54,979 nt of DNA from Verrucomicrobiales bacterium (GTDB lineage: Bacteria; Verrucomicrobiota; Verrucomicrobiia; Verrucomicrobiales; DEV007), in contig JABSSQ010000001.1 of the NCBI GenBank assembly GCA_013213905.1, positions 1-54,979 on the forward strand. The letters are read 5' to 3'. Below the pieces are notes generated by a model. The model did not search any database, was not told the origin of the DNA, and was given only the letters and a program-made list of their open reading frames with translations. This document shows, piece by piece, positions 12,552-37,839 of the stretch (its first letter is position 1; the number at the start of each line of letters is the position of its first letter). The translations under genes were made by a program, and so were the position numbers.

Positions 12552-13550
12552 ATGAAGCAGCTATTGATCACCGGGGGGACCGGGTCGTTTGGAAGAGCGT
12601 TCGTTGAGCGTCTGCTCAGGGAATACCCGGGGCTCGAAAGAATTATTATCTTCTCTCGCGATGAGTTGAAGCAGTTTGAGATGTCCCAGGTGTTCTCGCC
12701 GCAGGAATATCCCGCTCTCCGCTACTTCCTCGGAGACGTGAGGGATGCCGACCGCCTTCGGCGTGCTCTGCAGGGAATTGATACGGTTGTTCACGCTGCC
12801 GCGCTGAAGCAGGTGCCTGCAGCTGAGTACAATCCCATGGAGTTTATTAAGACAAACGTCATGGGGGCTCAGAATATTGTCGAAGCCTGTATCGATGCCG
12901 GGGTTGAGCGGGTTGTGGCACTGTCGACTGACAAGGCCTGTGCTCCCGTGAATCTTTACGGCGCGACAAAGCTTTGCTCGGACAAGATTTTTGTCGCAGC
13001 CAACAATTATGCCGGTGGAATTGATGCCCGGTTCTCAGTGGTGCGATATGGCAATGTGATGGGCTCGCGGGGTTCAGTGATTCCATTCTTTATCCAGAAA
13101 AAGGAGAGTGGTTCTCTTCCCATCACTGATTCTGAAATGACACGTTTTAACATCACATTGAACGAAGGCGTAGATCTGGTAATCAAGGCATTGGAGCATT
13201 CTGAGGGAGGCGAGATTTTCGTTCCCAAGATCCCATCTTATCGCATCCTCGATGTGGCAGAAGCTATCGGCCCGGAATGTGAGAAGCCAGTCGTAGGGAT
13301 CCGTCCCGGGGAAAAGATCCATGAGGAAATGATCACTGATGCGGATGCTCCGATGACCGTGGATATGGGCGACCGCTATGCGATTTTGCCAAGTGCCAAT
13401 GAGCGGTTAACTGAAAAGTATCTTGGCGAGCTCGGCTGCGTTATGGTCCCTGAAGGATTTCGATATAATTCCGGCACGAATGAAGAGTTCTTAACGGTTG
13501 AAGAAATTCGCAGTCTTATTGAGGAAAACGTGAAGGATAAGACTTCCTGA
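12552..13550 (+). CDS. pseB: UDP-N-acetylglucosamine 4,6-dehydratase (inverting), PseB
   Basis: A 332-residue SDR enzyme for the first step of CMP-pseudaminic acid synthesis, converting UDP-GlcNAc to UDP-2-acetamido-2,6-dideoxy-L-arabino-hexos-4-ulose. It has the Rossmann loop GGTGSFG (8-14), the catalytic STDK segment (125-128), Tyr136 and Lys140 (YGATK), and the soluble short form without the membrane domain seen in WbpM/CapD. The start is ATG, 20 bp after wzm. It heads a tight pseB-pseC-pseF-pseG run. Confidence 0.94.
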   Translation: MKQLLITGGTGSFGRAFVERLLREYPGLERIIIFSRDELKQFEMSQVFSPQEYPALRYFLGDVRDADRLRRALQGIDTVVHAAALKQVPAAEYNPMEFIKTNVMGAQNIVEACIDAGVERVVALSTDKACAPVNLYGATKLCSDKIFVAANNYAGGIDARFSVVRYGNVMGSRGSVIPFFIQKKESGSLPITDSEMTRFNITLNEGVDLVIKALEHSEGGEIFVPKIPSYRILDVAEAIGPECEKPVVGIRPGEKIHEEMITDADAPMTVDMGDRYAILPSANERLTEKYLGELGCVMVPEGFRYNSGTNEEFLTVEEIRSLIEENVKDKTS

Positions 13551-13558
13551 TAAGAGTT

Positions 13559-14737
13559 ATGATTCCTTACGGGAAGCAGAGTATTTCAGAGGAAGACGTC
13601 GAGGCCGTGGCTGAGGTGCTTCGGTCAGATTATCTGACTTGTGGTCCTCGCGTTGAGGCCTTCGAAAATGCCTTTGCTGAAATGTGCGGAGCGGAGTTTG
13701 CTGTCGCATGCTCGAATGGCACTGCCGCCCTGCATCTTGCTATGCTTGCGACAGGGGTTGGCGAGGGAGACAGGGTGATTACCACTCCGATCACCTTTCT
13801 TGCCTCTGCCAATGCTGGAAGATATGTCGGTGCCGAAGTGGACTTCTGTGACATCGAGCCTGAGACCGCCACACTGGGGGCGGCGTTCCTGGAGGATTCC
13901 TGGAGAGATGAAACAAACGCGGTTGTTGGAGTCGACTATGCCGGGCACCCTGCAGATTTCGAAGCGATTTCAAAAGTCGCCAGCGAACGCGGAGCTGTCG
14001 TAATCGAGGATGCTTGCCATGCAGTTGGGGGGCGCTGGAAGAAGGCGGATGAAGAGTATCGGGTTGGATCGCTGCCCTGGGTTGATGCAGCAACGTTCAG
14101 TTTTCACCCGGTGAAAACGTTGACGACAGGTGAAGGGGGAATGGTGACCACTAATAACCCCGAGATTGCTGAGCGGGCACGATTGCTGCGAAGTCACGGA
14201 ATGGTTCGTAAACCCGACAAGTTTCAGTTATTTGGCACTTCGGGGGCATTGAGCGAAGTCGGAGACTGGGCCTACGAAATGCAGGAGCTGGGATTCAATT
14301 ATCGCCTAACGGATCTTCAGTGTGCCTTAGGGATTTCCCAGCTGAAACGGTTGCCTGAATTTATAGAGCGCCGGCAACAAGTTGTTTCAAAATACAATGA
14401 AGCATTCGCGGAATTGGAGTTGCTGAAGACGCCTTCGATTGGTCCATGGATTGGTGATGAGAATGAATTGAGTTGGCATCTATATCCGGTGCGGGTTGAT
14501 TTTAAATCCTTGGGGAAGTCCAAGAAGCAGTTTGCTGCGGAACTCAGGGAAAAGGGGATTGGCAGTCAGGTGCACTACATTCCTGTCTCTGAGCAGCCTT
14601 ACTATCGATCCGAGGGTGTCCATTTTCCAAATGCGAACTCATTTTATGACTCCGTGATTAGCCTGCCTCTTTTCCCTTCAATGACGGATAGTGACAGTTC
14701 GTTAGTCTGCGAAGCAGTATCGGATCTTTTGAATTAG
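13559..14737 (+). CDS. pseC: UDP-4-amino-4,6-dideoxy-N-acetyl-beta-L-altrosamine transaminase, PseC
   Basis: A 392-residue PLP aminotransferase for step two of pseudaminic acid synthesis. It starts IPYGKQSISEEDV, typical of PseC. The PLP-binding Asp151 lies in EDACHAVG and the Schiff-base Lys186 in SFHPVK, followed by TTGEGGM. It lies 8 bp after pseB and 2 bp before pseF, consistent with one transcript. The start is ATG. Confidence 0.94.
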   Translation: MIPYGKQSISEEDVEAVAEVLRSDYLTCGPRVEAFENAFAEMCGAEFAVACSNGTAALHLAMLATGVGEGDRVITTPITFLASANAGRYVGAEVDFCDIEPETATLGAAFLEDSWRDETNAVVGVDYAGHPADFEAISKVASERGAVVIEDACHAVGGRWKKADEEYRVGSLPWVDAATFSFHPVKTLTTGEGGMVTTNNPEIAERARLLRSHGMVRKPDKFQLFGTSGALSEVGDWAYEMQELGFNYRLTDLQCALGISQLKRLPEFIERRQQVVSKYNEAFAELELLKTPSIGPWIGDENELSWHLYPVRVDFKSLGKSKKQFAAELREKGIGSQVHYIPVSEQPYYRSEGVHFPNANSFYDSVISLPLFPSMTDSDSSLVCEAVSDLLN

Positions 14738-14739
14738 AG

Positions 14740-15444
14740 ATGTCATGCGTCTGCATCATTCCTGCTCGAGGTGGCAGTAAAAGAATCAGGAATAAGAATA
14801 TCCGATCTTTTTCCGGTCGGCCGATCATTGAGTGGTCGATAGAGGCAGCGCTTGAAGCGGACCTGTTTGCCAGAGTGGTAGTTTCGACCGACAGCGAAGA
14901 AATTGCAAAGGTAGCGAGGGGTGTCGGTGCTGAAGTTCCTTTCTTCCGTCCTGCAGAATTGTCCGATGATTACACCGGGACGATTCCGGTAGTGAAGCAT
15001 GGCATCGAGGAGTTGGAAAAGACCGGGGAAGCCATCTCTTCGGTATGTTGTCTCTATGCGACGGCTCCTTTTGTGACTGCTGAGCGACTCGCTGAGGCTA
15101 AGGGAATGCTGGACGATGACCCCGAAACCCAGTTTGTGTTCCCTGTGAGTTCATTTCCTTCTCCCATCTTCAGGGGAGTTGAACTCGATCCGGAAGGTCG
15201 GGTTTCGATGATCTGGCCGGAGAAGGAACAGGTTAGGTCGCAGGATCTACCTGATGTTTATCATGATTCGGGTCAATTCTATTGGGGGCTGCGAGATGCC
15301 TTCGTTAGTCAGTTGAGTGTTTTCTCTCCTCACTCCAAGGGAATGGTGATTCCACGGAAAGAAGTTCAGGATATCGACACCGAGGAAGACTGGTTGAGTG
15401 CCGAGGCCCTTTTCAACGTGTTGAAGCTGAACGAAGCCAAATGA
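14740..15444 (+). CDS. pseF: CMP-pseudaminic acid synthetase (cytidylyltransferase), PseF
   Basis: A 234-residue cytidylyltransferase that activates pseudaminic acid with CTP. It has the CTP-binding loop IPARGGSKRIRNKN (7-20), the FSGRPIIEWSI segment, and VYHDSGQFYWG, typical of PseF rather than NeuA. Its last four bases (ATGA) overlap the start of pseG. It is one of three CMP-sugar synthetases in this locus, with those at 26121 and 36149. Confidence 0.92.
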   Translation: MSCVCIIPARGGSKRIRNKNIRSFSGRPIIEWSIEAALEADLFARVVVSTDSEEIAKVARGVGAEVPFFRPAELSDDYTGTIPVVKHGIEELEKTGEAISSVCCLYATAPFVTAERLAEAKGMLDDDPETQFVFPVSSFPSPIFRGVELDPEGRVSMIWPEKEQVRSQDLPDVYHDSGQFYWGLRDAFVSQLSVFSPHSKGMVIPRKEVQDIDTEEDWLSAEALFNVLKLNEAK

Positions 15445-16472
15445 AGGCGGTATTTCGAGTTGATGCATCGAAAGAAATGGGAGCGGGGCATGTCATGAGA
15501 ACCCTGGCCCTGGGGCAGGAGCTTCTCAGTAGAGGGTATGCCGTCATCTATCTCATGGCCAGTATCCCTGAATGGGCCGAGAATCGACTCCGCTCAGAGG
15601 GGATAGGTTGCGAACTAGTCGGGGGCGAAGAGTGCGGCGGGCTCCGGGACGCGTCTCGCACTCTAAAGTTCTGTCAGGATTTTGAGGCTGATTGGCTCGT
15701 TGTTGACGGGTACCATTTTTCCGATGGATTCCGCTCCACTGTTCAGGCCAGCGAATATCGCGTCTTACTGTTCGATGATCATGGTGGCGATCGTTTGCTG
15801 CCGGCAGCGGTGGTGCTCAATCAGAATGCCTATGCAGATGAGAGACTTTATCGAGAGACTTCCGGTTATAGTGTTCTCCTTGCAGGGATAGATTACTGCC
15901 TGATTCGAAATGAGTTTTTTGAGCAGCGAAAGTTACCAACGAACGTTGGGGAATCTGAAGTGCGTTACCTGGTCACGGTAGGAGGTACGGATCCCAAGAG
16001 AGCGAGTGAAAGAATTCTTGGTGAGATCCTCGAGATCCAAGAAAGGAAGGCATCGGTTAAAGTGATATCTAACGACCGTAGTTTTCTGGCAAGTATGGAA
16101 CGGGAAGCTGTTCCGGGGCAGCATAAGGTGGAATTAATTGAGAGCGCCCAGAATATGGCGGAATGCCTGGCTTGGGCTGACTTTGTTTTTACTGCTGCGG
16201 GAAGTACGATTTGGGAATGTGCCTTTATGAACGTTCCCGTCGCCTACGTGTTGTCTGCGGATAACCAGGAATTGAATCACCAGTATCTGCAACGTATCGA
16301 AGGTGGTGTTTTTCTGGGTGATATCAGGCAATCCCTGACTGAGGAGTTTTCTGAGGCTGTTCGTTACTTGGTTAACGAATTCGATGGTGCCGCGAAATGT
16401 AATCTTCCTGAGGTTGGCGGGAAAGGCAGAGCATCGGTGGTTGATGTGATGGAAGCGACTTTGGCCTCCTAA
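15441..16472 (+). CDS. pseG: UDP-2,4-diacetamido-2,4,6-trideoxy-beta-L-altropyranose hydrolase, PseG
   Basis: A 343-residue GT-B-fold hydrolase that releases UDP from the 2,4-diacetamido sugar. The start KAVFRVDASKEMGAGHVMRTLAL includes the GxGHxxR motif of the MurG/PseG fold, and FTAAGSTIWECAFMNVPV in the C-terminal half is the nucleotide-binding region. The start overlaps pseF by 4 nt (ATGA). PseG normally acts after acetylation by PseH, but no PseH-like acetyltransferase is present here; some PseG proteins carry a fused acetyltransferase, and this one is too short for that. Confidence 0.92.
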   Translation: MKAVFRVDASKEMGAGHVMRTLALGQELLSRGYAVIYLMASIPEWAENRLRSEGIGCELVGGEECGGLRDASRTLKFCQDFEADWLVVDGYHFSDGFRSTVQASEYRVLLFDDHGGDRLLPAAVVLNQNAYADERLYRETSGYSVLLAGIDYCLIRNEFFEQRKLPTNVGESEVRYLVTVGGTDPKRASERILGEILEIQERKASVKVISNDRSFLASMEREAVPGQHKVELIESAQNMAECLAWADFVFTAAGSTIWECAFMNVPVAYVLSADNQELNHQYLQRIEGGVFLGDIRQSLTEEFSEAVRYLVNEFDGAAKCNLPEVGGKGRASVVDVMEATLAS

Positions 16473-16481
16473 TTTGAGCGA

Positions 16482-17201
16482 ATGCGAGCCGCGATTCTAA
16501 GTGATATCCATGGGAACTTTGCAGCTCTGGAAGCCGTATTGCGAGCTGCTCGCGAGGCGAGTGTCGAGGTTATCATTAACGCAGGTGATTGCGTGGGGTA
16601 TTACTATCACCCTCATCAAGTTTATCGAAAATTGAAGAGCCTCGGGGCAATATCTATCCGCGGAAACCACGAGGATATGTTGAGGGACTGGGTCGAAGAC
16701 CGCGAGGGCGTTCGCGAGCGAATCAGAGGGAAATACGGGAGCGGGCTTGAGGTTGCCGCAGAAGAGTTTTCGCCTGAAGAGATGAACGAGATCTTCCAAA
16801 TGCCGGAGGAGCGAACCTTATCGCTCGATGGTTCCACTGTTCATGTCTGTCATGGTGCTCCGTGGGACCCCGGTGGTTACGTGTATCCAGACGCACCCGA
16901 TGAATTCAAATCGCGAATTGCCCGTGAAGTGCCCGAAGGTTTGGTTGTGATGGGGCATACCCATTACCCAATCCATTGGGATTTAGGGAAGGTAGTTGCT
17001 GTAAATCCGGGTTCGGTTGGGCAACCGAGGGACCGAAAGCCGGGAGCGTGCTGGGCGCTTTTCGATTCGAATAACGACGCCCTGGAGTTGCGGCGGGAAT
17101 CCTACGACTACGAAAGTGTGATCAGGGAATGTGAGCAACGGGATCCGGGATTGCCTTTCCTCGGCGAAGTTCTGAGGCGTAGAAAGGAGGCGGTCGAGTG
17201 A
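16482..17201 (+). CDS. Calcineurin-like metallophosphoesterase (YfcE/MJ0936-like)
   Basis: A 239-residue metal-dependent phosphoesterase with the full motif set: SDIHGN (7-12), GDCVGY (35-40), GNHED (61-65), CHGAPWD in the middle, GHTHYP, and the family-typical NPGSVGQPRD. It is cytosolic, with no signal peptide. Its place between pseG and pseI, with a 9-bp gap before it and a 4-bp overlap after it, suggests a role in making or modifying the pseudaminic acid. Possible roles are removing a phosphate from an intermediate or cleaving a nucleotide by-product. The family is broad and the substrate cannot be read from the sequence. Confidence 0.82.
   Translation: MRAAILSDIHGNFAALEAVLRAAREASVEVIINAGDCVGYYYHPHQVYRKLKSLGAISIRGNHEDMLRDWVEDREGVRERIRGKYGSGLEVAAEEFSPEEMNEIFQMPEERTLSLDGSTVHVCHGAPWDPGGYVYPDAPDEFKSRIAREVPEGLVVMGHTHYPIHWDLGKVVAVNPGSVGQPRDRKPGACWALFDSNNDALELRRESYDYESVIRECEQRDPGLPFLGEVLRRRKEAVE
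17183..17190 (+). promoter_or_regulatory. Shine-Dalgarno of the ATP-grasp gene
   Basis: AAAGGAGG lies 7 nt before the GTG at 17198, inside the end of the phosphoesterase gene. It supports the GTG start and coupled translation. Such clear ribosome-binding sites are rare in this window. Confidence 0.75.
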
Positions 17202-18166
17202 AGTTTCTGGTAACAGGCGCTAACGGAGACATAGGGGCAGCCGTCGGGCGTGTGCTTCGGGAGAGATATCCTGATGACCAGATCGATGGTGTTGATGCGG
17301 GTGGCAGGCTGCCTGGATTAGGCATCTTTGATCGGATGTTTCCTATTCCTCTTGCTTCAAGCGGCGACTACCTCAGAACGTTGATTGAACTGTCGGAAGG
17401 CTGCGATCTGGTTATTCCGACAAGTGAGCCGGAAATACTGGCGATTGCTAACTCCGAGCCTGATTTTCAACTTGGAGATCGGGCCTTGATCCTTGATTCC
17501 TCGATCGTTAATACCTTTTGCGACAAGCTGTCTGCATACGAATGGTTTGTGCAGAATCAGGTTGCTACTCCAAAAACAGCACTGCTCGGTGATGCATCGC
17601 CAGAGGACTTACCCCTTCTTTTGAAGCCGCGGCGTGGCTGCGGAAGTCGCGGGATCCAAGTGGTGGAGAACGCTTTGCATCTGGAACAGCAGATCAATGA
17701 GAATAGAGGGGGAGACGATTTTCTCGCCCAGGAGTATCTCACTGAGGCTGATGAGGAATATACTTGTGCCCTGTTTAAGTTTGGTGGCGAGCTGAGACAT
17801 ATCGCCATGAGGCGTCAGTTGCAGGGTGGATTTACCGCTCAGGCAGAAGTAGTGTCCAGCGAGTTAATTGATCATTTTCTGGTGATGATAGGGAGTCGGA
17901 TTGATTTTGAGGGATGTCTGAATGTCCAGTTTCGGATGAAAAAAGGGGTGCCTGTCGTATTTGAGATCAATCCCCGCATTTCCAGCACGGTGATGATGCG
18001 TCACAAGATCGGGTTCGAGGACCTCGTTTGGTGGATCGAATCCAGGATGCGTCAATCGGTTCCGGAATTCAGACAACCTGACGCAGGCACTAAAATTTTT
18101 CGTTTGTCCGACGAGGTTGCCTTTGATCCCAATGGCGAACCTGTTGAATCAGTCTTATCCCAATGA
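17198..18166 (+). CDS. ATP-grasp ligase-like protein in the pseudaminic acid cluster
   Basis: A 322-residue protein of the carbamoyl-phosphate-synthase-like ATP-grasp group. An N-terminal pre-ATP-grasp Rossmann region (VTGANGDIGAAVG, 5-17) is followed by the ATP-binding lysine stretch PLLLKPRRGCGSRGIQVV (about 139-156) and the metal-binding VFEINPRISSTV (about 250-261). These enzymes join a carboxylate to an amine or thiol through an acyl-phosphate. The gene overlaps both neighbours by 4 nt and starts with GTG. A role in acylating the 4-amino group of the Pse precursor, or a later amino-acid decoration, is inference; no acetyltransferase for that step is present. Confidence 0.82.
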   Translation: MKFLVTGANGDIGAAVGRVLRERYPDDQIDGVDAGGRLPGLGIFDRMFPIPLASSGDYLRTLIELSEGCDLVIPTSEPEILAIANSEPDFQLGDRALILDSSIVNTFCDKLSAYEWFVQNQVATPKTALLGDASPEDLPLLLKPRRGCGSRGIQVVENALHLEQQINENRGGDDFLAQEYLTEADEEYTCALFKFGGELRHIAMRRQLQGGFTAQAEVVSSELIDHFLVMIGSRIDFEGCLNVQFRMKKGVPVVFEINPRISSTVMMRHKIGFEDLVWWIESRMRQSVPEFRQPDAGTKIFRLSDEVAFDPNGEPVESVLSQ

Positions 18167-19101
18167 GCGACCAGGAGAAAATTGAAAGTCTAGCAAAGCA
18201 GCATGGTCTAATCCTAAATGGCTATGGCTTTTACGAGGTTAGGGATAAGCCGTCTCTGGATGAGCTGGCGAAGTTTTACGGTGAGGAATACTACCAGACT
18301 GCACAGGGTTCCTACGAGCTGGAGTATGGTGAGCCGGAATTGAATTATCTTAGGGCGAAGATCAGGCAAAGATTCCAATATCATTCCTCTAAGGTCCCAT
18401 TGAAGGCATCAACAGGACGACTTCTCGATGTTGGTTGTGGAGAAGGGCATGCCCTGGCATACTATCGATCACAGGGGTGGGACGTTCGGGGGCTCGATTT
18501 CAGTGTCGCAGGCTGCGAGAGAATGAATCCGGACTGCCTGCCCTTTTTGACTCAAGGTGACATCTATCACAATCTGGAAGCGCTTATCGTCGGGGGCGAT
18601 CGATTCGACGTAATCGTTCTTGATAACGTTTTAGAGCATGTTCTTGATCCGCTTGGGTTGATGAAAAAGTTGCTCGAGGTCCTTTCAGAAACGGGTGTCT
18701 TAATTGTTGATGTCCCTAACGATTTCTCAAAGGTGCAGATGGCTGCTTTGGAAGCCGGTTATGTTGATGATCCCTTCTGGATTTCTGTCCCGGCACACTT
18801 GTCCTATTTCAATCCCTCGGGTCTGGAGAATCTTGCTAAGTCAGCTGGGTTTGCCCCTGTGGGATTGCTTGGCGATTTCCCGGTTGATATCTATTTACTG
18901 AATCCAAATTCGAATTATTGGGGGAATGTCAACGAGGGTGTGAATGGCGTTTCGCGAGGCCGTGCGGCTCACGATGCTCGAATCCTCATCGAGAACCAAC
19001 TGGATCAAAGTGATGACGGCGGGGTCAATCGTATGTTTGAGGCTATGGGGCGAGTTGGTTTAGGCCGCTGTATTGCCGGATTTTTTGTTCCGGCTGGATA
19101 A
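18163..19101 (+). CDS. Class I SAM-dependent methyltransferase
   Basis: A 312-residue protein. A short N-terminal region with GFYEVRDKPS and FYGEEYY resembles the lead-in of sugar-modifying methyltransferases. The SAM-binding domain has LLDVGCGEG (87-95) and VIVLDNVLEHVLDP at motif II/III. The ATG overlaps the ATP-grasp gene by 4 nt. It probably methylates a sugar or a terminal residue of the glycan; oxygen versus nitrogen methylation cannot be told. A 40-bp gap follows before pseI. Confidence 0.85.
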   Translation: MSDQEKIESLAKQHGLILNGYGFYEVRDKPSLDELAKFYGEEYYQTAQGSYELEYGEPELNYLRAKIRQRFQYHSSKVPLKASTGRLLDVGCGEGHALAYYRSQGWDVRGLDFSVAGCERMNPDCLPFLTQGDIYHNLEALIVGGDRFDVIVLDNVLEHVLDPLGLMKKLLEVLSETGVLIVDVPNDFSKVQMAALEAGYVDDPFWISVPAHLSYFNPSGLENLAKSAGFAPVGLLGDFPVDIYLLNPNSNYWGNVNEGVNGVSRGRAAHDARILIENQLDQSDDGGVNRMFEAMGRVGLGRCIAGFFVPAG

Positions 19102-19141
19102 TTCAGCCTAAGCGCATTGCTCAGTTAACAAGATAGAAAAC

Positions 19142-20188
19142 ATGAACATAGGCGGAATTGAGATAAAAGATCAGCACCCGACATTTGTGATCGCGGAGCT
19201 TTCGGCAAATCACAATGGCAGCTTGGATGATGCAATTGCCTTGATGGAAACCGCGAAAGCGAGCGGAGCCGACGCCATTAAAATCCAGACCTACAAGGCG
19301 GACACGATTACGCTCAAAAGTAACCGGCCTGAATTTCAGATTAATTCAGGTACGATGTGGGATGGGCGCAACCTCTATGATCTCTATGACGAGGCGCACA
19401 CACCGTGGGACTGGCATGAAGCGCTATTCAGTAAAGCGAGTGATCTTGAGATCCCACTGTTCTCAACACCATTTGATGATACGGCGGTGGAGCTTCTGGA
19501 AAGGTTTGACCCACCCGCCTATAAGATTGCTTCGTTTGAATTGATCGACCATGGGCTGTTGCGAACCGTTGCGCGCACGGGTAAACCGATTATCATGTCC
19601 ACCGGAATGGCGACCCTGGGCGAGATTGAGGAAGCTGTTAGTGTGATTCGAGAGGAAGGGTGCGAATCACTTTGCTTGCTGAAATGCACCAGTTCATACC
19701 CTGCTCCGATTGAAGAGGCGAACCTGCGGACCATTCCACATCTGGCGGAAACATTCGATGTCGTCGCCGGTCTCTCGGATCATACTTTGACGGAGGTTGT
19801 TCCAATTGGTGCCGTAGCCATTGGGGCAAGGGTAATCGAAAAGCATTTAACCCAGTCCCGCGACCTGCCTGGCCCCGATAGCGCCTTCTCAATTGAACCC
19901 GCTGAATTTCGTTCGATGGTCGATGGGATTCGCACTGTCGAGGCTGCTCTCGGTGGAGTCGATTACAGCCTTACTGATGGCGAGAAAGCCAGTGTGAAAT
20001 ACCGCAGATCCCTGTTTGTGTCCGCAGACATGAAGAAGGGGGATAAGTTCTCCGCTACGAACATTAAATCTGTCAGGCCCGGACACGGGCTCCCGCCCAA
20101 ATTCCTCCCGGAGGTCATTGGGAAAACAGCCGTAGCTGATTATGAAGTTGGGACGCCTCTCAGTTGGGAGATGATGTCCGACAGTTGA
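19142..20188 (+). CDS. pseI: Pseudaminic acid synthase, PseI
   Basis: A 348-residue NeuB-family synthase that condenses the 2,4-diacetamido-altropyranose with phosphoenolpyruvate to give pseudaminic acid. The TIM-barrel part has AELSANHNGS (18-27), KIQTYKADTI, FSTPFD and KIASFEL. The C-terminal SAF/antifreeze-like domain (about 290-348) is complete, unlike the second NeuB-type protein at 27302. The start is ATG. It is separated from pseG by the phosphoesterase, ATP-grasp and methyltransferase genes. Confidence 0.93.
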   Translation: MNIGGIEIKDQHPTFVIAELSANHNGSLDDAIALMETAKASGADAIKIQTYKADTITLKSNRPEFQINSGTMWDGRNLYDLYDEAHTPWDWHEALFSKASDLEIPLFSTPFDDTAVELLERFDPPAYKIASFELIDHGLLRTVARTGKPIIMSTGMATLGEIEEAVSVIREEGCESLCLLKCTSSYPAPIEEANLRTIPHLAETFDVVAGLSDHTLTEVVPIGAVAIGARVIEKHLTQSRDLPGPDSAFSIEPAEFRSMVDGIRTVEAALGGVDYSLTDGEKASVKYRRSLFVSADMKKGDKFSATNIKSVRPGHGLPPKFLPEVIGKTAVADYEVGTPLSWEMMSDS

Positions 20189-26086: not shown

Positions 26087-26120
26087 TGGTTTGTCGCATT
26101 ACTTGAATCATTTCTATTCT

Positions 26121-27302
26121 GTGAAAAAGAACGTCATCGCCATTATTCCCGCTCGAAGCGGCTCCAAGGGCATTCCTGATAAGAACATCAGGGAAATTGG
26201 TGGCCGTCCCTTGATGGCCTGGGCTATTAAGGCCTGCCAACAGGTGGCCTCCATTGACCGGGTGATTGTCTCAACGGACTCCCCTGAGTATCGGGATATT
26301 GCGGTGAGGGAAGGCGCTGAAGTTCCTTTCCTGCGGCCAGTTGACCTTTCCGGTGATGATTGTTCGTCAGAGTCTGCTCTGCTTCACGTGCTGGAGTGGA
26401 TGGAAGCAAACGGGGACGAGGTCCCAGATGTTCTCGTCTTTGTTCAGTGCACTTCTCCGCTGCTTGATTCAAAGGATCTTGAAAACGCGGTGCAGGAGCA
26501 TATCGAAAAGGAAGCAGGCTCCACGTTTTCGATGTCACCATCTCACCGTTTCGTCTGGAGACCTAGTGAAGGGGGGATGAAAGGGGTCAATCACGATCAC
26601 CGTTCGCCCCGTAAACGCCGGCAGGATCTGGATCCAGAGTATGTTGAAACTGGATCATTTTATGTGCTCGATGTGGCAAAGTTCAGGGAGGAAAAGCACC
26701 GTTTTGTGACGCCTGTTTCCGGATATGAAGTGGCTGCCTGGCGGTCCTTTGAAATTGACGATCTTTGGGACTGGGAGCTTTGCGAAAAACTCCTCAGGCA
26801 ACGACGAAGCGAAAGCCATGCCATTGACTGGTCAAAGATCAAGACGCTTGCTTTCGACTTTGACGGTGTTTTCACGGATAATCGGGTCTGGACTGATGAG
26901 AATGGTATCGAGTCCGTTGCCTGTTCACGTTCAGATTGGCTCCGATTTGAAGAACTGACAAAATCACGGCCTGATATTCGATGCGTTATTGTTTCGAAAG
27001 AACGCAATCCGGTCGTCGCAGCCAGAGCGGCAAAGTTAAAGGTCAAAGTGCTGAGTGGAATCGACGATAAGGTGCCTGCTCTGGAGGCCTGGATGGGAGA
27101 CGGAGTGACTGGCTGGGACACCGCTGCTTTCGTGGGAAATGATCTTAATGATCTCCCGTGTATGAATCGCGCTTCAGTCGCTGTTGCCGTTGCCGATGCC
27201 TATGAAGAAGTCCGCGAAGAAGCGGACCTCGTTTTGAGCCGAGCCGGTGGACACGGTGCAGTGAGAGAGCTGTTTGATCTAATTTTAAAACCTGAAATCT
27301 AA
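26121..27302 (+). CDS. CMP-nonulosonate synthetase fused to a HAD phosphatase
   Basis: A 393-residue two-domain enzyme. Residues 1-225 are a NeuA-type cytidylyltransferase, starting VIAIIPARSGSKGIPDKNIR. The C-terminal part (about 240-393) is a KdsC-like HAD phosphatase with the nucleophile motif AFDFDGVFTD, Ser in VIVSKE, Lys in SGIDDK and the metal motif GNDLND. All catalytic positions are present, unlike the degenerate HAD tail of animal CMP-sialate synthetases. It could dephosphorylate a nonulosonate-9-phosphate and activate it with CTP. Its stop overlaps the start of the synthase downstream (TAATG). GTG at 26121 is preferred; TTG at 26091 is an alternative. Confidence 0.87.
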   Translation: MKKNVIAIIPARSGSKGIPDKNIREIGGRPLMAWAIKACQQVASIDRVIVSTDSPEYRDIAVREGAEVPFLRPVDLSGDDCSSESALLHVLEWMEANGDEVPDVLVFVQCTSPLLDSKDLENAVQEHIEKEAGSTFSMSPSHRFVWRPSEGGMKGVNHDHRSPRKRRQDLDPEYVETGSFYVLDVAKFREEKHRFVTPVSGYEVAAWRSFEIDDLWDWELCEKLLRQRRSESHAIDWSKIKTLAFDFDGVFTDNRVWTDENGIESVACSRSDWLRFEELTKSRPDIRCVIVSKERNPVVAARAAKLKVKVLSGIDDKVPALEAWMGDGVTGWDTAAFVGNDLNDLPCMNRASVAVAVADAYEEVREEADLVLSRAGGHGAVRELFDLILKPEI

Positions 27303-28189
27303 TGTTCATTAAAAACGAACCTCATGAAGGGCCCATAGTGATTGCGGAGATTGGCTGCAATCATAAGGGGTCAATGGAACTGGCGAAGGAGTTGCTTGTC
27401 TCAGCAGCGCTCTTCTGCAAAGTGCCGGCGGTCAAGTTCCAGAAACGGACTAACAGAGAGCTTCTTTCCGAGGAAGAATACAATGCTCCTCACCCGAACC
27501 CGATGCATTCCTATGGTGATACATACGGGGCGCACCGTGAGTATCTTGAATTGGATGTCGATCAGCATCAACAGCTCAAAGAGTGGTGCGAGGAACTGGG
27601 GCTGATCTACAGCTCATCTGTTTGGGATCTCACCGCAGCAAAGGAAATCTGTGGTCTCGAACCGACGTCAGTTAAGATTCCATCAGCGTGCAATACGAAG
27701 TGGCATATGCTGGAGTGGATCTGCGCTGAGTATGGCGGTGAAATTCAAGTATCCCTCGGTATGACAACGCGAGCCGAAGAGGATGAACTGATTGCAATGT
27801 TTGAGAGACACGGGCGGCTGAAAGATCTCGTTCTGTTTTCCTGCACGTCAGGTTATCCTGTTGCCTTCGAAGATGTTTGCCTCGGAGAAATTACGCGACT
27901 TCGCGACACCTATGCCAAGTCAGTTAAAGCGGTTGGATTTTCCGGACATCATCTGGGGATTGCCGTTGATATCGCGGCCATCACACTGGGCGCAGAGCTG
28001 GTAGAGCGCCACTTTACTCTCGATCGGACATTTAAGGGAACGGATCACGCTGCCTCTCTTGAGCCTAACGGAATGAGGAAACTGGTTCGGGACGTGAGAA
28101 ACGTTTCCAAGGCATTCGGAACCAAATCGAGCGAAATTCTCGAAGTCGAGGCGGTGCAGCGCGAGAAGCTGAAAAGCGGAGACAGCTGA
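27302..28189 (+). CDS. NeuB-type nonulosonate synthase without SAF domain
   Basis: A 295-residue PEP-dependent sialic-acid-synthase-like TIM barrel. It has IAEIGCNHKGS (14-24), VKFQKRT, SLGMTTRAEE, SGYP, FSGHH in place of the usual LSDHT, and RHFTLDRTFKGTDH (236-249). The C-terminal SAF domain of NeuB and PseI, which reaches over the partner's active site, is absent: the reading frame ends and another gene begins 24 nt later. Its overlap with the synthetase-phosphatase fusion suggests a 9-phosphate product, for example KDN-9-phosphate from mannose-6-phosphate, since no ManNAc-producing epimerase is present. That substrate assignment is inference. Confidence 0.85.
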   Translation: MFIKNEPHEGPIVIAEIGCNHKGSMELAKELLVSAALFCKVPAVKFQKRTNRELLSEEEYNAPHPNPMHSYGDTYGAHREYLELDVDQHQQLKEWCEELGLIYSSSVWDLTAAKEICGLEPTSVKIPSACNTKWHMLEWICAEYGGEIQVSLGMTTRAEEDELIAMFERHGRLKDLVLFSCTSGYPVAFEDVCLGEITRLRDTYAKSVKAVGFSGHHLGIAVDIAAITLGAELVERHFTLDRTFKGTDHAASLEPNGMRKLVRDVRNVSKAFGTKSSEILEVEAVQREKLKSGDS

Positions 28190-31124: not shown

Positions 31125-33716
31125 ATGACAAAAATTGAGGTCAACCTGGAGGAAGGTAATCTCCGTGACAACATGCTTGCCCGGCTTTCCTGGGCGCTCG
31201 CGCCTGTCGAGAACTATGAGCTTGTCCTGGCGGGATGCGAGAATCCCGGAGAGGTCAGCCTTCCTGGGGAGTTTGACGAGGCTGTTGGACCTCTTCTGGA
31301 GAGTATGCTCCAAAAGGCGCAGTGGCGTTCTCGTCCGTTTTCAGGAATTGAACCTGGGCACCTGCGAGTTCAGCAGGAGGGTGATGATGATCCCTGGGAT
31401 GAGAATATCTCCTCTTCCTTTCGAAACGAAGGAAGTAAGCTTTGCCTGCTTTCGAGTCGCATCAGGGCTGTCGAGTTGCCGCGACTACGGCAGCGCAGCG
31501 GAAACCGCTTCAGGGATTGGGTCGAAGACTGGAAACGCGACTATTCCAAGGCTGCAGTTATTGCAACAGGACCTTCGTTCGATTGGTACAGCGAATTTGA
31601 TTTCGGTGATCAGTTTGTCGTGACCTGCAACAGTGCGATTGTTAATCGCGAGATGATGGAGCAAGTGCAGCCTGAGCTCGTGGTATTTGCCGACCCCATT
31701 TTTCACTTTGGTCCATCACAGTATGCCGGAAAATTCAGGGCTTCCTTGCTTGAGGCCGCAAGCGAGTTTGAGTTCAAAATAGCGATTCCGGAAATGTATG
31801 CATTCCTCTTTCTTGCATCGTTTCCGGAGTTTGAGAATCGAACCATCTTCCTTCCGTCCAGACCTGATCTTCCTGAGTTTAATCTCGATCTTTGCGGCGA
31901 CTTCATTGTTCGCACCACTAAGAATATCCTTACTTACCTGATGCTCCCTCTCGCTGGATCAGTTGCGAAAGAAATCAAGGTGCTGGGCTGCGACGGAAGG
32001 GCGCTGAAGGAGGATTCCTATTTCTGGGGGCACAGCCAGTCGGCGCAGATTACCGATAAGATGGCAAACATCCAGGCGGTGCACCCCGGATTCTTCGAGA
32101 TCGACTACAATGAGTATTACCTGGAGCATTGTGGAATGCTGGAGCAGTTGCTCAGGGATGGTGAAATTGGTGGAAGTCGCTTTTACAGCGTAACTCCTTC
32201 GAAGATTCCGGCGCTTGGCCATCGGGCAGTTTCGGATGAACTGGCTGCTACCGTCGATGATGATATCGTTGAAGCACTTTCAGAGGGAGGTTATTCAAAG
32301 CTTAAGCAGGAAGCGGCCCGCCTCGAAGTTCGTGGGGAAAAGATCGGCCTGATATCTGTGAATCCCAGTCTCAAGAATGGAGTGGGGCACGCACTCTATC
32401 AGGATCTCTCGATGAAGCAGGCAATCGAGGTGTCAGGAAAGGGGTTTGTGAGTATTGGTCAGAGCGATCTAATCGACGAACTGAAGGGGGATTTTATCCT
32501 GCCATCCTTCACCTCGACGATGTTTGAAATCGTGCGGTCGGACGAATCCCGGCAGCATGTCTTAGCGGCTCAGTTTGTTGATGAATTGCTGATTTCCCTG
32601 AAGCTGCTTTCCGACGTTGCTGATACGAGCGAAGCGGTTGTGTTTCTCTACCTGGGGCATTCTTCGATTTTGGCACTTTTAAGGGCCCGGTTGGCGACCT
32701 TTCGGGCTCCGTTCGGGAAGATTGTGGTGAATCTCTTCTCAGGCTATTTTGATCTGTCGGACAAAAAGAGCGAGATCCTTGACCTTGTGAATGCAGGGTT
32801 GCTTTCATCGTTTGTTCAGGATGAAGAGCGAATCGAAGTTACTGTCGATTCAGTCATGTTACGGGATGTCTTGGCCCGCCGAACTGGAGTTGCACTTGAC
32901 GTGCTGCCAATGGCTCCCAGTCAAACCTTTGAATCCAGCCAGTCACCCAGCAAGGAAGGTGCGCCGATTCGGGTAGTCTTTCCATCGCAGGCTGAGAGCA
33001 TTCGAGGGTTTGATTTACTGAAGCGTTTTATCGATCGCCGTGCTTCCGAATACGAAGGGAAAATTGACTTTATCATCCGACAACGGGCTCCATGGGATTG
33101 GAAATATGTTAAGCCCTTCCGCGACCGCAAAAATGTGAAGTGGATAGTGGGGGACCTCAGTGAGGACGAGTATATTGACTTGATTGTCAGTGGTGAAGTG
33201 ATTCTGCTTCCTTATTCACCGGAGGGGTTTCGTCTTCGAACATCCTCCATCTTGGCGGAAGCCTGGTCTCTCGGTACGCCCGTTGTCGTGGCGAATCATA
33301 CCTGGTTAGCCCATCAGGTGGTAGAAGTCGGTGCAGGGTGGATCGCAAGCCAGATGACTGTAGATGCTCTTGCTGCCGCACTGGATGAGATGATCAGGGA
33401 TCGAGATTTGATTCCCACGATGTGTGACACAGATCGCTTAAGGGCGTGGCTGGACGAGAACTCGATTGAGAATTTCGTTTCGAAAGTAGTCGGTAGCAGA
33501 TGTGAGCTGAGCTGTCCAGATGTGATGAAAGTCTCCGCCTCTTTAACAGAGGTAGAGAAGTTGGAGTCGCTGGAGCTGGACTGGAAGACCCGGCTCTGGG
33601 AAAAGGCAAGACAAAAGAAGAGTCTGGTGCCCTATCCGATCAGGAGAGTTATGCGCTGGATGTTTTGGACTTGCCTTAGTACAGGGCGGAAGATTTACCG
33701 TGCGGTGAAGCGTTAA
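31125..33716 (+). CDS. DUF115/Maf-like domain fused to a GT4-like glycosyltransferase
   Basis: An 863-residue protein. The N-terminal half has a DUF115-type domain (about 135-350) with AAVIATGPSFDWY (nucleotide-binding loop near 145-151), an FADPIFHFG segment, and KVLGCDGRALKEDSYFWGH. DUF115 is the core of the Maf flagellin glycosyltransferases that use CMP-nonulosonates. The C-terminal half (about 610-800) resembles a GT4 nucleotide-binding domain, with SIRGFDLLKRF and SSILAEAWSLGTPVVVAN. The middle part is unassigned. A bifunctional transferase that adds a nonulosonate and another sugar is plausible. The start is ATG; the gene stands alone after a 181-bp gap. Confidence 0.72.
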   Translation: MTKIEVNLEEGNLRDNMLARLSWALAPVENYELVLAGCENPGEVSLPGEFDEAVGPLLESMLQKAQWRSRPFSGIEPGHLRVQQEGDDDPWDENISSSFRNEGSKLCLLSSRIRAVELPRLRQRSGNRFRDWVEDWKRDYSKAAVIATGPSFDWYSEFDFGDQFVVTCNSAIVNREMMEQVQPELVVFADPIFHFGPSQYAGKFRASLLEAASEFEFKIAIPEMYAFLFLASFPEFENRTIFLPSRPDLPEFNLDLCGDFIVRTTKNILTYLMLPLAGSVAKEIKVLGCDGRALKEDSYFWGHSQSAQITDKMANIQAVHPGFFEIDYNEYYLEHCGMLEQLLRDGEIGGSRFYSVTPSKIPALGHRAVSDELAATVDDDIVEALSEGGYSKLKQEAARLEVRGEKIGLISVNPSLKNGVGHALYQDLSMKQAIEVSGKGFVSIGQSDLIDELKGDFILPSFTSTMFEIVRSDESRQHVLAAQFVDELLISLKLLSDVADTSEAVVFLYLGHSSILALLRARLATFRAPFGKIVVNLFSGYFDLSDKKSEILDLVNAGLLSSFVQDEERIEVTVDSVMLRDVLARRTGVALDVLPMAPSQTFESSQSPSKEGAPIRVVFPSQAESIRGFDLLKRFIDRRASEYEGKIDFIIRQRAPWDWKYVKPFRDRKNVKWIVGDLSEDEYIDLIVSGEVILLPYSPEGFRLRTSSILAEAWSLGTPVVVANHTWLAHQVVEVGAGWIASQMTVDALAAALDEMIRDRDLIPTMCDTDRLRAWLDENSIENFVSKVVGSRCELSCPDVMKVSASLTEVEKLESLELDWKTRLWEKARQKKSLVPYPIRRVMRWMFWTCLSTGRKIYRAVKR

Positions 33717-34827: not shown

Positions 34828-35622
34828 ATGAAGAAGAACTCCCACTATGAATCCAGGGTGCTGTCATGCCTGAGGAATGGAAAGCCTGCTATTGGCAGTT
34901 GGATCAATACGTCCAGCCCCATTGTAGGTGAATTGATGGCCGGATGCGGCTTCGACTTTCTAACCGTCGATGTCGAGCATTCGCCTGCTGGAGTCGGAGA
35001 GACCCAGTCGATTTTTCAAGCGGTTCGAAGCGGAAACCCTGATTGCGATTGTCTGGTTCGTCTTCATGGAGTGGACTATTCCCATGTGAAGCGCTTTCTG
35101 GATTCCGGAGCTAACGGGGTCATTGCTCCGCTGGTGGAAACCCGGGAAGATGTCGAGACTCTGGTAGCTGCGACCAAGTATCCGCCGGTGGGCCGAAGAG
35201 GAGTAGGTTTCTGTCGTGCCAGCCGCTACGGATTGAACATCATCGACTATGTTGAAAATGTGAATGATCAGATGTTGCTCGCATTGCAGATTGAGTCAGC
35301 GACGGCAGTCGAGAAAATTGATGATCTACTTTCGGTAGATGGCGTCGATGCGGTATTTCTCGGACCTTATGACCTCAGCGCATCGCTCGGAGTGACGGCA
35401 CAGTTTGATCACCCCGCTTATATCGAAGCAAGAGACAAGGTTCTTGAAGCCTGCAAAAAACACGGGATCGCCGCAGGTATCCACGTGGTCCAGCCTGACC
35501 CGGCTGAACTGCTCGAGCGAGAGAAGGAAGGATACCAGTTGCTGGCTTACAGTCTTGATATCACGATGCTGACTAAGGCTTGTTCGGAAGGACTTGAGAC
35601 AATCCGGGCAGGAATCTCCTGA
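34828..35622 (+). CDS. HpcH/HpaI-type class II pyruvate aldolase
   Basis: A 264-residue TIM-barrel metal-dependent aldolase that reversibly adds pyruvate to an aldehyde, making or splitting a 2-keto-3-deoxy or 4-hydroxy-2-oxo acid. The catalytic set known from HpaI is present: DVEH with His51, VRLHG with Arg79, QIES with metal ligand Glu156, and GPYDLS with metal ligand Asp182. Its two close neighbours are a NanQ-type anomerase and a CMP-sugar synthetase. In this context it may build an ulosonic acid rather than degrade an aromatic. The start is ATG; a 19-bp gap follows. Confidence 0.87.
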   Translation: MKKNSHYESRVLSCLRNGKPAIGSWINTSSPIVGELMAGCGFDFLTVDVEHSPAGVGETQSIFQAVRSGNPDCDCLVRLHGVDYSHVKRFLDSGANGVIAPLVETREDVETLVAATKYPPVGRRGVGFCRASRYGLNIIDYVENVNDQMLLALQIESATAVEKIDDLLSVDGVDAVFLGPYDLSASLGVTAQFDHPAYIEARDKVLEACKKHGIAAGIHVVQPDPAELLEREKEGYQLLAYSLDITMLTKACSEGLETIRAGIS

Positions 35623-35641
35623 GCCAAAATTCGTATTTTTT

Positions 35642-36115
35642 ATGATCGTCAGCAAAGAAAACGGAGTAGATCGGAAAGCGCTGATTCAGGCCTTTCCCTG
35701 GATCGGTAAGTGTCTCGAATGGGCGGCTTCGGCCCCCGCGTGGTCTGAAGAGAATGAAGCGGTCACAGAGGGGATCTATGTGAAGAAAGTCGCTTATGAG
35801 ACACATGATCCCTCAGAGTGTCGCTTCGAGAACCACCGTAAGGAACTGGATTTGCAACTGATCATCGAGGGAGGAGAGGTAATTGAGTTGCTGGCTCCAG
35901 CTCAGGTTGAAAAGGATGAAGGGTATCAAGTTGATGGAGATGTTGAGTTCTATCATTCATCCGATGCGGTTGCGACACGCCTGCCTCTCAAGGCTGGAGA
36001 CTTTGCGGTATTCTTTCCGGATGATGTTCATTGTTGCGGGTGGACGCGGGAAGGTGTAGCGACGGTTCGCAAGTACGTGTTCAAAATTGACCGTGAGCAC
36101 TGGAACTTGGTCTGA
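35642..36115 (+). CDS. nanQ: YhcH/NanQ-like sialic acid anomerase
   Basis: A 157-residue cupin-like protein of the YhcH/YjgK/YiaL/EbgC family. E. coli YhcH (NanQ) speeds the interconversion of sialic acid anomers. Visible family features are CRFENHRKELDLQLIIEGGE (His65, Glu77 region), DVEFYHS (100-106), LKAGDFAVFFPDDVH (116-130, His130) and RKYVFKI. The length fits the family. The ATG at 35642 is preferred to an overlapping TTG at 35594. Sitting between a pyruvate aldolase and a CMP-sugar synthetase, it could supply the beta-anomer that CMP-sialate synthetases use. The precise substrate is inference. Confidence 0.85.
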   Translation: MIVSKENGVDRKALIQAFPWIGKCLEWAASAPAWSEENEAVTEGIYVKKVAYETHDPSECRFENHRKELDLQLIIEGGEVIELLAPAQVEKDEGYQVDGDVEFYHSSDAVATRLPLKAGDFAVFFPDDVHCCGWTREGVATVRKYVFKIDREHWNLV

Positions 36116-36133
36116 AACGAAGAATTAGTTCAC

Positions 36134-36140
36134 GGGAGGA
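36134..36140 (+). promoter_or_regulatory. Shine-Dalgarno of the third cytidylyltransferase
   Basis: GGGAGGA lies 8 nt before the ATG at 36149, in the 33-bp gap after the anomerase gene. It supports that start. Confidence 0.7.
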
Positions 36141-36148
36141 AGAATAAG

Positions 36149-36847
36149 ATGTCGATTGTCGCCCTTTTGCCAATGAAGGCCCACAGTTCCCGAGTGCCCG
36201 GGAAGAACTTCAGAATGTTCGCGGGGAAACCACTGTTCCGGTGGATTCTGGATACGCTTCTGGAGTTGAATGAAATTGATCGGGTAGTGATCAATACGGA
36301 TGCGAGAAGTAATCTTGAGGAAGCAGGGTTAAAGGAAGAGGGGAAAGTGTTGATTCGTGATCGTCCCGAAATCCTTTGTGGGGACGAAGTAAGCATGAAT
36401 CTGATCATTGGTGACGACCTTGAAAACGTTCCGGCTGAAACCTACTTGATGACGCATACAACAAATCCACTTATAAGCGCGGCCACTATTCGGAGAGCGA
36501 TAAGCACTTATGAAAAGGGAGTGAAGGCGGGAAAAGACAGCTTGTTTTCGGCGAACAAGCTGCAGACTCGATTTTATCGTGAAGATTGCAGCCCTGTGAA
36601 TCATGACCCTGAAGACTTGATCCCGACGCAAGATCTCGAACCTTGGTATGAAGAAAATTCCTGCCTTTACATATTTAATAGCGAGAGTTTTACGCGGACG
36701 AATGCACGTATTGGCGAGCGACCGGCGCTTTTTGAAACTCCCCGTCTGGAATCCGCTGATATCGATAACAAGGTTGAGTGGCATCAGGCTGAAATTATGG
36801 CATTAAGCCGACTTGTTTTCGAAAGTCACTCCAGTTTTGACGAGTAA
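36149..36847 (+). CDS. Acylneuraminate-type cytidylyltransferase (third CMP-sugar synthetase)
   Basis: A 232-residue NeuA-family protein. The nucleotide loop is a variant, VALLPMKAHSSRVPGKNFR (4-22), in place of the usual IPARxGSKxxPxKN; it keeps the Arg, Pro-Gly-Lys-Asn end. It then has THTTNPLISAATI (acceptor side) and ENSCLYIFN. The last residues contain ADIDNKVEW, matching the metal-binding Asp region. It closes the three-gene aldolase module and is followed by a 95-bp gap. A glycero- or other keto-acid sugar is a likely substrate; the variant loop marks a subgroup distinct from the pseF and 26121 proteins. Confidence 0.85.
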   Translation: MSIVALLPMKAHSSRVPGKNFRMFAGKPLFRWILDTLLELNEIDRVVINTDARSNLEEAGLKEEGKVLIRDRPEILCGDEVSMNLIIGDDLENVPAETYLMTHTTNPLISAATIRRAISTYEKGVKAGKDSLFSANKLQTRFYREDCSPVNHDPEDLIPTQDLEPWYEENSCLYIFNSESFTRTNARIGERPALFETPRLESADIDNKVEWHQAEIMALSRLVFESHSSFDE

Positions 36848-36942: not shown

Positions 36943-37839
36943 ATGATTTCTCCACAAAACTGTAAGGATACGATTTGCCGTAAATCCGCGCGTATGATTC
37001 GTCGCTCGGCAAAGCGTCGTGAGGTCGCGAAAAGGGCCAAAGCTATTCGATCTGGCCGGAGCGAGATGCCGGTGCTGGTCTATCAAATGGGAAAAGTTGG
37101 GTCATCAACAATTTCGTTCTCGATGAGAACTGCGGGGATTGAGTGTGAGCATGTCCACCGTGTTCTTCCGGAGACAATCAAGGCTGTGCGAAAACAACAT
37201 TTGCAGAGAGGAGTCGAACCGAAAGACGAGCGGGTTGGCCTCGCAATTGGGAGAAGACTCCGTGAAAGTAATGAGCCGGTTAGGATCATCACTATGGTGC
37301 GAGAGCCCATTAGCCGGAATATTTCTGCCTATTTTCAGAACCTTAGTGAATTTTTCGTTGGTGAGGAACTGAATTCGATTCGTGTCGATGGAGCAATCGA
37401 AACATTTCTTGAAGAATATCCTCACCAGACTCCGGTCAAATGGTTTGATGACGAGTTTGAGACGGCGACGGGGCTGAGTGTCTATCGAGGCGGTTTTGAT
37501 TTTGAGAAGGGCTACGAAATTTTCACTGAGGGAAAATATTCCGTGCTCTGCCTGCGTGTTGAAGAGCCGGATGAGACGAAACAGATTGCTCTTGAAGAGT
37601 TTCTTGGTCGCAAAGATATCATTTTAACATCCGCGAACGTCGCTAACCAGAAAGCGTACGCAGATCTCTATCGCGAGTTCAAGAATCAGGTGGTCCTTCC
37701 CGAGGAGTATATCGACAACCTGCTTCAATCGAAATATGCGACTTACTTCTACTCGGGCAAGGAACTTGAGAGAATCCGTGAAGGGTGGTCGAAAAACCGG
37801 CGCCAGCCGGTGATGGAGTACATCGCTCGCTGTGAGTGA
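36943..37839 (+). CDS. Sulfotransferase-like putative capsular polysaccharide synthesis protein
   Basis: A 298-residue protein with two sulfotransferase hallmarks: the 5'-phosphosulfate loop VYQMGKVGSSTI (46-57) and the 3'-phosphate motif VREPISRNISAYFQN (119-133). This fits the family often annotated as putative capsular polysaccharide synthesis protein. It probably transfers sulfate from PAPS to the glycan; the sulfate-activation genes are not in the window. The N-terminal 40 residues are strongly basic. The start is ATG. Retention of both motifs suggests it is active, but the acceptor is unknown. Confidence 0.75.
   Translation: MISPQNCKDTICRKSARMIRRSAKRREVAKRAKAIRSGRSEMPVLVYQMGKVGSSTISFSMRTAGIECEHVHRVLPETIKAVRKQHLQRGVEPKDERVGLAIGRRLRESNEPVRIITMVREPISRNISAYFQNLSEFFVGEELNSIRVDGAIETFLEEYPHQTPVKWFDDEFETATGLSVYRGGFDFEKGYEIFTEGKYSVLCLRVEEPDETKQIALEEFLGRKDIILTSANVANQKAYADLYREFKNQVVLPEEYIDNLLQSKYATYFYSGKELERIREGWSKNRRQPVMEYIARCE

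What the first reader, a model, noticed from the sequence alone, without database searches (positions are those of the whole stretch)
34828..36847. Candidate undescribed route to a CMP-ulosonate: aldolase, anomerase, cytidylyltransferase
Three tightly spaced genes, bounded by wider gaps, encode an HpaI-type pyruvate aldolase with full catalytic set, a YhcH/NanQ-type anomerase and a CMP-sugar synthetase with a variant nucleotide loop. Known CMP-sialate and CMP-Kdo routes use PEP-dependent synthases. Here the keto-acid could be built by pyruvate addition, its anomer corrected by the NanQ-like protein, and then activated by CTP. The anomerase makes sense only if an anomer-selective synthetase follows. 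To my knowledge this combination is not a described pathway.
Basis: inference. Interest (0 to 1): 0.8.

Follow-up and report, generated by a model that had tools for sequence, protein, structure and literature searches.

The report
Aldolase-fed CMP-sugar acid module
In a large surface-sugar gene cluster, three adjacent genes probably make an activated acidic sugar by joining two small molecules with an aldolase instead of the usual PEP-using synthase; related genomes carry the same activating enzyme but feed it with a quite different set of oxidising enzymes.

Summary
The three genes are real: HpcH/HpaI aldolase (ALD), YhcH-family protein (ANO) and NeuA-fold cytidylyltransferase (CYT), with gaps of 19 and 33 bp. 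CYT belongs to a conserved, undescribed subfamily (60-70% identical across several phyla). ALD-CYT linkage recurs in 13 of 84 CYT loci. In a sample of 384 genomes of the class, ALD and CYT co-occur (7 shared of 9 and 15; P about 1e-9), and no PEP synthase lies within 5 kb of a true subfamily member. Most CYT loci instead have a D-2-hydroxyacid dehydrogenase, often with an SDR and one of two unrelated lactonases. In this class the two supplies exclude each other: seven CYT genomes have ALD only, seven the dehydrogenase only. CYTs of the two types can be sisters (77% identical). Best reading: two interchangeable routes to one 2-keto sugar acid, activated by CTP. A sialyltransferase-like DUF115 protein nearby may transfer it. 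Weak points: the Arg that binds the carboxylate in CMP-sialate synthetases is Thr in 70 of 70 members; ANO is optional and its known role is with an aldolase; YhcH+aldolase also occurs without CYT. The sugar and its donor (pyruvate or hydroxypyruvate) are unproven.

The parts
34828..35622 (+). ALD: class II HpcH/HpaI 2-keto acid aldolase, proposed aldol step
   Evidence: PF03328 126.9 bits; PDB E. coli HpcH 4b5s E=1e-41; D48, E50, H51, R78, E156, D182 = catalytic and metal set of E. coli HpcH, 16/16 homologues; Ec Ala174 is Tyr181 and Ec Leu212 is His219 in 16/16. Linked to CYT in 13 of 84 other loci.
35642..36115 (+). ANO: YhcH/YjgK/YiaL (DUF386) protein, probable ulosonate anomerase (mutarotase)
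   Evidence: PF04074 85.6 bits; TIGR00022 70.9 vs cut-off 45.5 met, NanQ equivalog NF040884 58.5 vs 160 not met; H....D.Q and P..H motifs aligned with HI0227
36149..36847 (+). CYT: NeuA-fold cytidylyltransferase of a distinct subfamily, proposed CMP-ulosonate synthetase
   Evidence: PF02348 63.2 bits; AF2 model pLDDT 86.9, best PDB matches CMP-Kdn, CMP-Neu5Ac and CMP-Pse synthetases, then CMP-Kdo synthetases; both metal Asp (D204, D206) kept; subfamily signature K10, H103, R141, T160, R187
36943..37839 (+). NKWYS-domain protein (putative capsular polysaccharide synthesis; sulfotransferase-like is inference), next to the module here and in L001
   Evidence: PF10364 83.9 bits; 51% id homologue beside ANO-CYT in L001
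37908..38744 (+). DUF115/MptE-like protein with GNGPSL motif; candidate transferase using the CMP-activated acid
   Evidence: PF01973 39.1 bits; profile best PDB hits GT42 sialyltransferase CstII (E=0.02); AF2 model best Foldseek hits CstII 1ro8, ST6GALNAC2 and HPPK; within 5 kb of CYT in 34 of 84 loci

Best explanation
ALD joins a small 2-keto acid (pyruvate or, as I think slightly more likely, hydroxypyruvate) to a hydroxylated aldehyde, giving a 2-keto sugar acid. ANO speeds its ring opening and closing, and CYT couples the cyclic form to CMP. A sialyltransferase-like DUF115 protein nearby then transfers it to the glycan. In related bacteria the same CYT is fed by another route: SDR and lactonase (aldose to lactone to aldonate), then a D-2-hydroxyacid dehydrogenase (aldonate to 2-keto-aldonate). 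ALD is thus a non-homologous replacement for the dehydrogenase in supplying one CYT substrate. Shown by computation: gene identities, catalytic residues, linkage, mutual exclusion in this class, fold of CYT, absence of PEP synthases. Inferred: reaction direction, donor and acceptor, the CMP product, and the transferase step.
For: ALD beside CYT in 13 of 84 CYT loci from Verrucomicrobiota, Elusimicrobia, an alphaproteobacterial plasmid and an archaeal MAG. Class sample: CYT in 15 of 384 genomes, close ALD in 9, both in 7, P=1e-9. Mutual exclusion: 7 ALD-only versus 7 dehydrogenase-only CYT genomes, Fisher 0.0006; one ALD genome (G604) has its ALD unlinked, in another export/glycosyltransferase cluster. 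Sister CYTs L003 (dehydrogenase type) and L048 (ALD type), 77% identical, and no sugar-pocket position separating the two types. Two unrelated lactonases, never both in one locus, and SDR only in non-ALD loci. Complete ALD catalytic set. CYT fold closest to CMP-nonulosonate synthetases. DUF115 fold closest to CstII. HpcH aldolases accept hydroxypyruvate and pyruvate with hydroxyaldehydes (PMC7610986).
Against: Arg165 of NeuA (carboxylate salt bridge; R165A inactive, PMC2901514) is Thr, and Gln104 is His, in 70/70 members; invariant R141 and R187 might substitute but this is untested. Divergent CYT loci (L113, L102, L105, L058) hold an aldolase and a 2-hydroxyacid dehydrogenase together, so the two are not always alternatives. 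Close ALDs without CYT exist in G346 and G376, the latter paired with ANO near LacI and MFS genes that look catabolic. No biochemical data for any member.
Confidence: 0.58

Rival explanations
1. The pathway is: pyruvate plus a sugar aldehyde gives a 3-deoxy-ulosonate (Kdo-, Kdn- or hexulosonate-like) that CYT activates; hydroxypyruvate is not involved.
For: Pyruvate is the standard donor of this aldolase family; known CMP-activated ulosonates are 3-deoxy; YhcH acts on 3-deoxy acids Neu5Ac and KDN.
Against: CYT is shared with a lactonase/2-hydroxyacid dehydrogenase route that most simply yields a 3-hydroxy-2-keto acid, with no dehydratase seen among the recurrent neighbours; a common product would then need hydroxypyruvate.
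Confidence: 0.25
2. ALD and ANO form a catabolic or recycling pair that opens and cleaves a 2-keto sugar acid, next to CYT by chance or to remove surplus sugar.
For: YhcH is known from catabolism with an aldolase (PMC8141875); ALD-ANO pair without CYT in G376 beside LacI and MFS genes.
Against: In the class 7 of 9 close-ALD genomes have CYT, and every complete CYT genome lacking the dehydrogenase has ALD; without ALD, CYT in the window has no visible substrate supply.
Confidence: 0.12
3. CYT activates something other than an ulosonate, for example a different hydroxy acid, and ALD and the dehydrogenase act upstream in different ways.
For: Loss of the carboxylate Arg and of the Gln in all members; aldolase and dehydrogenase together in L113, L102, L105, L058.
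Against: Nearest folds are all CMP-nonulosonate synthetases; both supply modules centre on 2-keto acids; DUF115 neighbour is sialyltransferase-like.
Confidence: 0.15

Closest known systems
CMP-sialate, CMP-Kdn and CMP-pseudaminate synthetases (NeuA, PseF; PDB 1eyr, 6ifd, 9t4z, 9ftc)
   Same: Fold, CTP-site residues (S13, K19, N20, R72), DID metal motif
   Different: 20-25% identity; Arg165 to Thr, Gln104 to His, Arg12 to Lys; NCBIfam PseF equivalog cut-off not met; no NeuB/PseI partner
HpcH/HpaI aldolases (E. coli HpcH, YfaU, GarL; S. wittichii HKA)
   Same: Fold family and all catalytic residues
   Different: Below all equivalog cut-offs (176 bits vs 369 for HpaI); polar His at the Leu212 pocket position; sits in glycan biosynthesis clusters, not in ring-cleavage or sugar-acid catabolism
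YhcH/NanQ N-acetylneuraminate anomerase with NanA aldolase
   Same: Family DUF386 and pairing with a 2-keto acid aldolase
   Different: Class II aldolase instead of class I NanA; linked to a CMP synthetase; NanQ equivalog cut-off not met
KdsA-KdsC-KdsB and NeuB-NeuA routes
   Same: Build a 2-keto sugar acid, then activate with CTP
   Different: Those use PEP synthases; here a metal aldolase or, in relatives, lactonase plus 2-hydroxyacid dehydrogenase

Membership tests
CMP-nonulosonate synthetase (NeuA/PseF) | Nucleotidyltransferase fold closest to NeuA | tested here: met
   Foldseek top hits 9t4z, 6ifd, 1eyr, 1qwj, 9ftc
CMP-nonulosonate synthetase (NeuA/PseF) | Two metal-binding Asp (D209, D211 of N. 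meningitidis) | tested here: met
   D204 and D206, 68/68 aligned members
CMP-nonulosonate synthetase (NeuA/PseF) | Arg that salt-bridges the ulosonate carboxylate (Arg165) | tested here: not met
   Thr160 in 70/70; role of Arg165 from PMC2901514
CMP-nonulosonate synthetase (NeuA/PseF) | Curated family score cut-off | tested here: not met
   TIGR03584 63.3 bits vs 205.7
CMP-nonulosonate synthetase (NeuA/PseF) | Makes a CMP-ulosonate | not testable with these tools
   Needs enzyme assay
HpcH/HpaI aldolase | Pfam PF03328 gathering score | tested here: met
   126.9 vs 25 bits
HpcH/HpaI aldolase | Catalytic His45/Arg70 and metal Glu149/Asp175 (E. coli numbering) | tested here: met
   H51, R78, E156, D182; 16/16
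HpcH/HpaI aldolase | Assignment to a named aldolase (HpaI, GarL, YfaU) | tested here: not met
   All equivalog cut-offs missed by far
YhcH/DUF386 anomerase | Family score | tested here: met
   PF04074 85.6 vs 26.5; TIGR00022 70.9 vs 45.5
YhcH/DUF386 anomerase | NanQ equivalog score | tested here: not met
   58.5 vs 160
PEP-dependent CMP-sugar acid route | NeuB/PseI/KdsA-type synthase in the module | tested here: not met
   No NeuB/PseI homologue within 5 kb in any subfamily locus; only the 31%-identical outsiders L114 and L115 have one. KdsA was not searched for.
GT42-like CMP-sialate transferase (DUF115 neighbour) | Sialyltransferase fold and GNGPSL motif | tested here: inconclusive
   CstII is the best hit, E=1.5e-4, TM 0.44-0.48; HPPK scores similarly

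The most novel reading that the evidence does not exclude
A new class of nucleotide sugar, a CMP-activated 2-keto-aldonate that is not 3-deoxy, is made in several phyla by two unrelated and interchangeable routes: an aldolase using hydroxypyruvate, or lactonase plus 2-hydroxyacid dehydrogenase. It is activated by a NeuA-like subfamily with a rebuilt carboxylate site.
Probability: 0.33. Interest if true: 0.85.

Novelty: new variant of a known kind. Interest (0 to 1): 0.64.

Why it matters
The well-known CMP-activated sugar acid pathways build the acid with a PEP synthase. A conserved, widely spread CMP-synthetase subfamily that is fed instead by an aldolase or by oxidation of an aldonate would add a nucleotide sugar and two routes, give annotators a correct name for proteins now called 'acylneuraminate cytidylyltransferase family', and explain a component of many environmental surface glycans. 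The two supply modules give independent, testable constraints on the unknown sugar.

Tried and rejected
Chance neighbourhood: rejected by linkage and co-occurrence. PEP synthase of the same cluster feeding CYT: unlikely, because the PseI and the short NeuB lie in separate modules that hold their own cytidylyltransferases (CYT15 and CYT-HAD), and none accompanies CYT elsewhere. A general ALD-ANO-CYT triad as the unit: rejected, ANO is facultative. A missing dehydrogenase elsewhere in the window's genome: best hit 34-36%, no orthologue. A HAD phosphatase between CYT and ALD in L001 and downstream in L113 suggested a phosphorylated intermediate; homologues in only two loci plus one unlinked orthologue in the window's genome, so left open. 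E. coli K3 capsule (4-deoxy-2-hexulosonic acid) as a chemical precedent: no CYT relative found in E. coli by DNA search (weak test), so unresolved. Paper searches for the combination returned nothing relevant.

Full report
What is there. ALD keeps every catalytic and metal residue of E. coli HpcH; ANO is a DUF386/YhcH protein; CYT is a PF02348 cytidylyltransferase with an unusual nucleotide loop. The genes lie in a large glycan cluster that also holds a pseudaminate-type set (12552-20188: PseB-, PseC-, PseF-, PseG- and PseI-like) and a second PEP-synthase pair (cytidylyltransferase fused to a KdsC-like HAD at 26091-27302 and a short NeuB at 27302-28189). Each PEP synthase lies in a module with its own cytidylyltransferase, so CYT at 36149 is left without one.

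The synthetase is a distinct subfamily. Sixty-one GTDB loci were found, most 60-70% identical to CYT, in Verrucomicrobiota, Proteobacteria, Cyanobacteria, Nitrospira, Bacteroidota, Elusimicrobia, a Lachnospiraceae MAG and an archaeal MAG. Its AlphaFold2 model (pLDDT 86.9) is closest to CMP-Kdn, CMP-Neu5Ac and CMP-Pse synthetases, then CMP-Kdo synthetases. The CTP and metal residues are kept, but Arg165 of N. meningitidis NeuA, which salt-bridges the sialate carboxylate and is essential (PMC2901514), is Thr in 70/70 members; Gln104 is His in 70/70; invariant Arg141 and Arg187 are new. The substrate is therefore probably an acid of another shape; that it is an ulosonate is inferred.

Two supply modules. 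Around CYT in 84 loci (three near-identical pairs and two distant outsiders included), 71 have no aldolase nearby; of these 63 have a D-2-hydroxyacid dehydrogenase, 53 a GT2, 44 an SDR and 27 a lactonase, either a metallo-beta-lactamase-fold one or an SMP-30 one, never both. Thirteen have an aldolase; none of these has the GT2, the SDR or a lactonase, and only the four divergent ones (L113, L102, L105, L058) have a dehydrogenase. The dehydrogenase's nearest solved relatives are phosphoglycerate dehydrogenases; the SDR's include glucose 1-dehydrogenases. Read together this is aldose to lactone to aldonate to 2-keto-aldonate, then CMP transfer (inference).

Mutual exclusion. In 384 genomes of the window's class, CYT occurs in 15 and the close ALD in 9, with 7 shared (hypergeometric P about 1e-9). 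Among CYT genomes, G000, G001, G211, G275, G311, G418 and G604 have ALD but no orthologous dehydrogenase (best hit 37% or less), while G261, G364, G499, G516, G559 and G434 have the dehydrogenase but no close ALD; G625 has the dehydrogenase and no close ALD in the class search; G513 is cut by a contig end. Fisher P=0.0006. In G604 the ALD is unlinked but lies between an export-protein-like gene and a glycosyltransferase. L003 (dehydrogenase) and L048 (ALD) have sister CYTs, 77% identical, and no pocket position separates the two types. The simplest account is that both modules deliver the same 2-keto acid.

Which donor. HpcH aldolases accept pyruvate, and some accept hydroxypyruvate, with glycolaldehyde, glyceraldehyde, lactaldehyde or erythrose (PMC7610986). 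If the dehydrogenase route yields a 3-hydroxy acid, convergence would need hydroxypyruvate. In the Acuticoccus plasmid (L113) the order ALD, CYT, phosphoglycerate-dehydrogenase-like, HAD phosphatase could supply hydroxypyruvate from 3-phosphoglycerate; this is speculation. Pyruvate remains possible.

The anomerase. The only characterised YhcH opens Neu5Ac for NanA (PMC8141875), so its presence is explained by the aldolase alone. ANO is enriched in ALD loci (4/13 versus 2/71, P=0.005), and an ALD-ANO pair occurs without CYT (G376). Two loci have ANO near CYT without a linked aldolase (L003, L135), so a role for CYT is possible too.

Transfer. The DUF115 protein two genes downstream has the GNGPSL motif; its family profile and model both give the GT42 sialyltransferase CstII as best PDB match, followed by human sialyltransferases and archaeal HPPK. 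DUF115 is within 5 kb in 34 of 84 loci. It is a candidate transferase, not a proven one.

Verdict. I found no description of it in the literature available here.

Noticed in passing
window 12552-20188, 26091-28189 and 34828-36847: Three separate CMP-acid activation modules in one glycan cluster: pseudaminate type, NeuB plus cytidylyltransferase-HAD fusion, and the aldolase module.
   Followed up: partly
window 27302-28189: NeuB-family synthase of only 295 aa; only the NeuB domain is detected, so the C-terminal SAF domain seems to be missing.
   Followed up: no
window 31125-33716: 863-aa protein with a DUF115-like N-terminal part (by eye) and a weak GT1 C-terminal match; relatives occur beside CYT in L001, L040 and L043.
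   Followed up: no
L096 9237-10043 and L097 9394-10694: Close ALD homologues without CYT in G346 and G376; in G376 paired with a YhcH protein near LacI, MFS and 2-hydroxyacid dehydrogenase genes, perhaps catabolic.
   Followed up: partly
L113 7201-10362: Plasmid of Acuticoccus sp. carries aldolase, CYT (about 41% identical), phosphoglycerate-dehydrogenase-like and HAD genes in a row.
   Followed up: partly
L114 9989-12899 and L115 9986-12896: Capsule-like loci on E. coli and Enterobacter plasmids pair a 31%-identical cytidylyltransferase with an inositol monophosphatase-family protein and a roughly 515-aa NeuB-family protein, an unusual set.
   Followed up: no
L145 6797-7441: The window's genome holds, at a contig end, a 64% orthologue of the HAD phosphatase that sits between CYT and ALD in L001.
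   Followed up: partly
G614: A genome of the same genus lacks both CYT and ALD, so the module is accessory.
   Followed up: no
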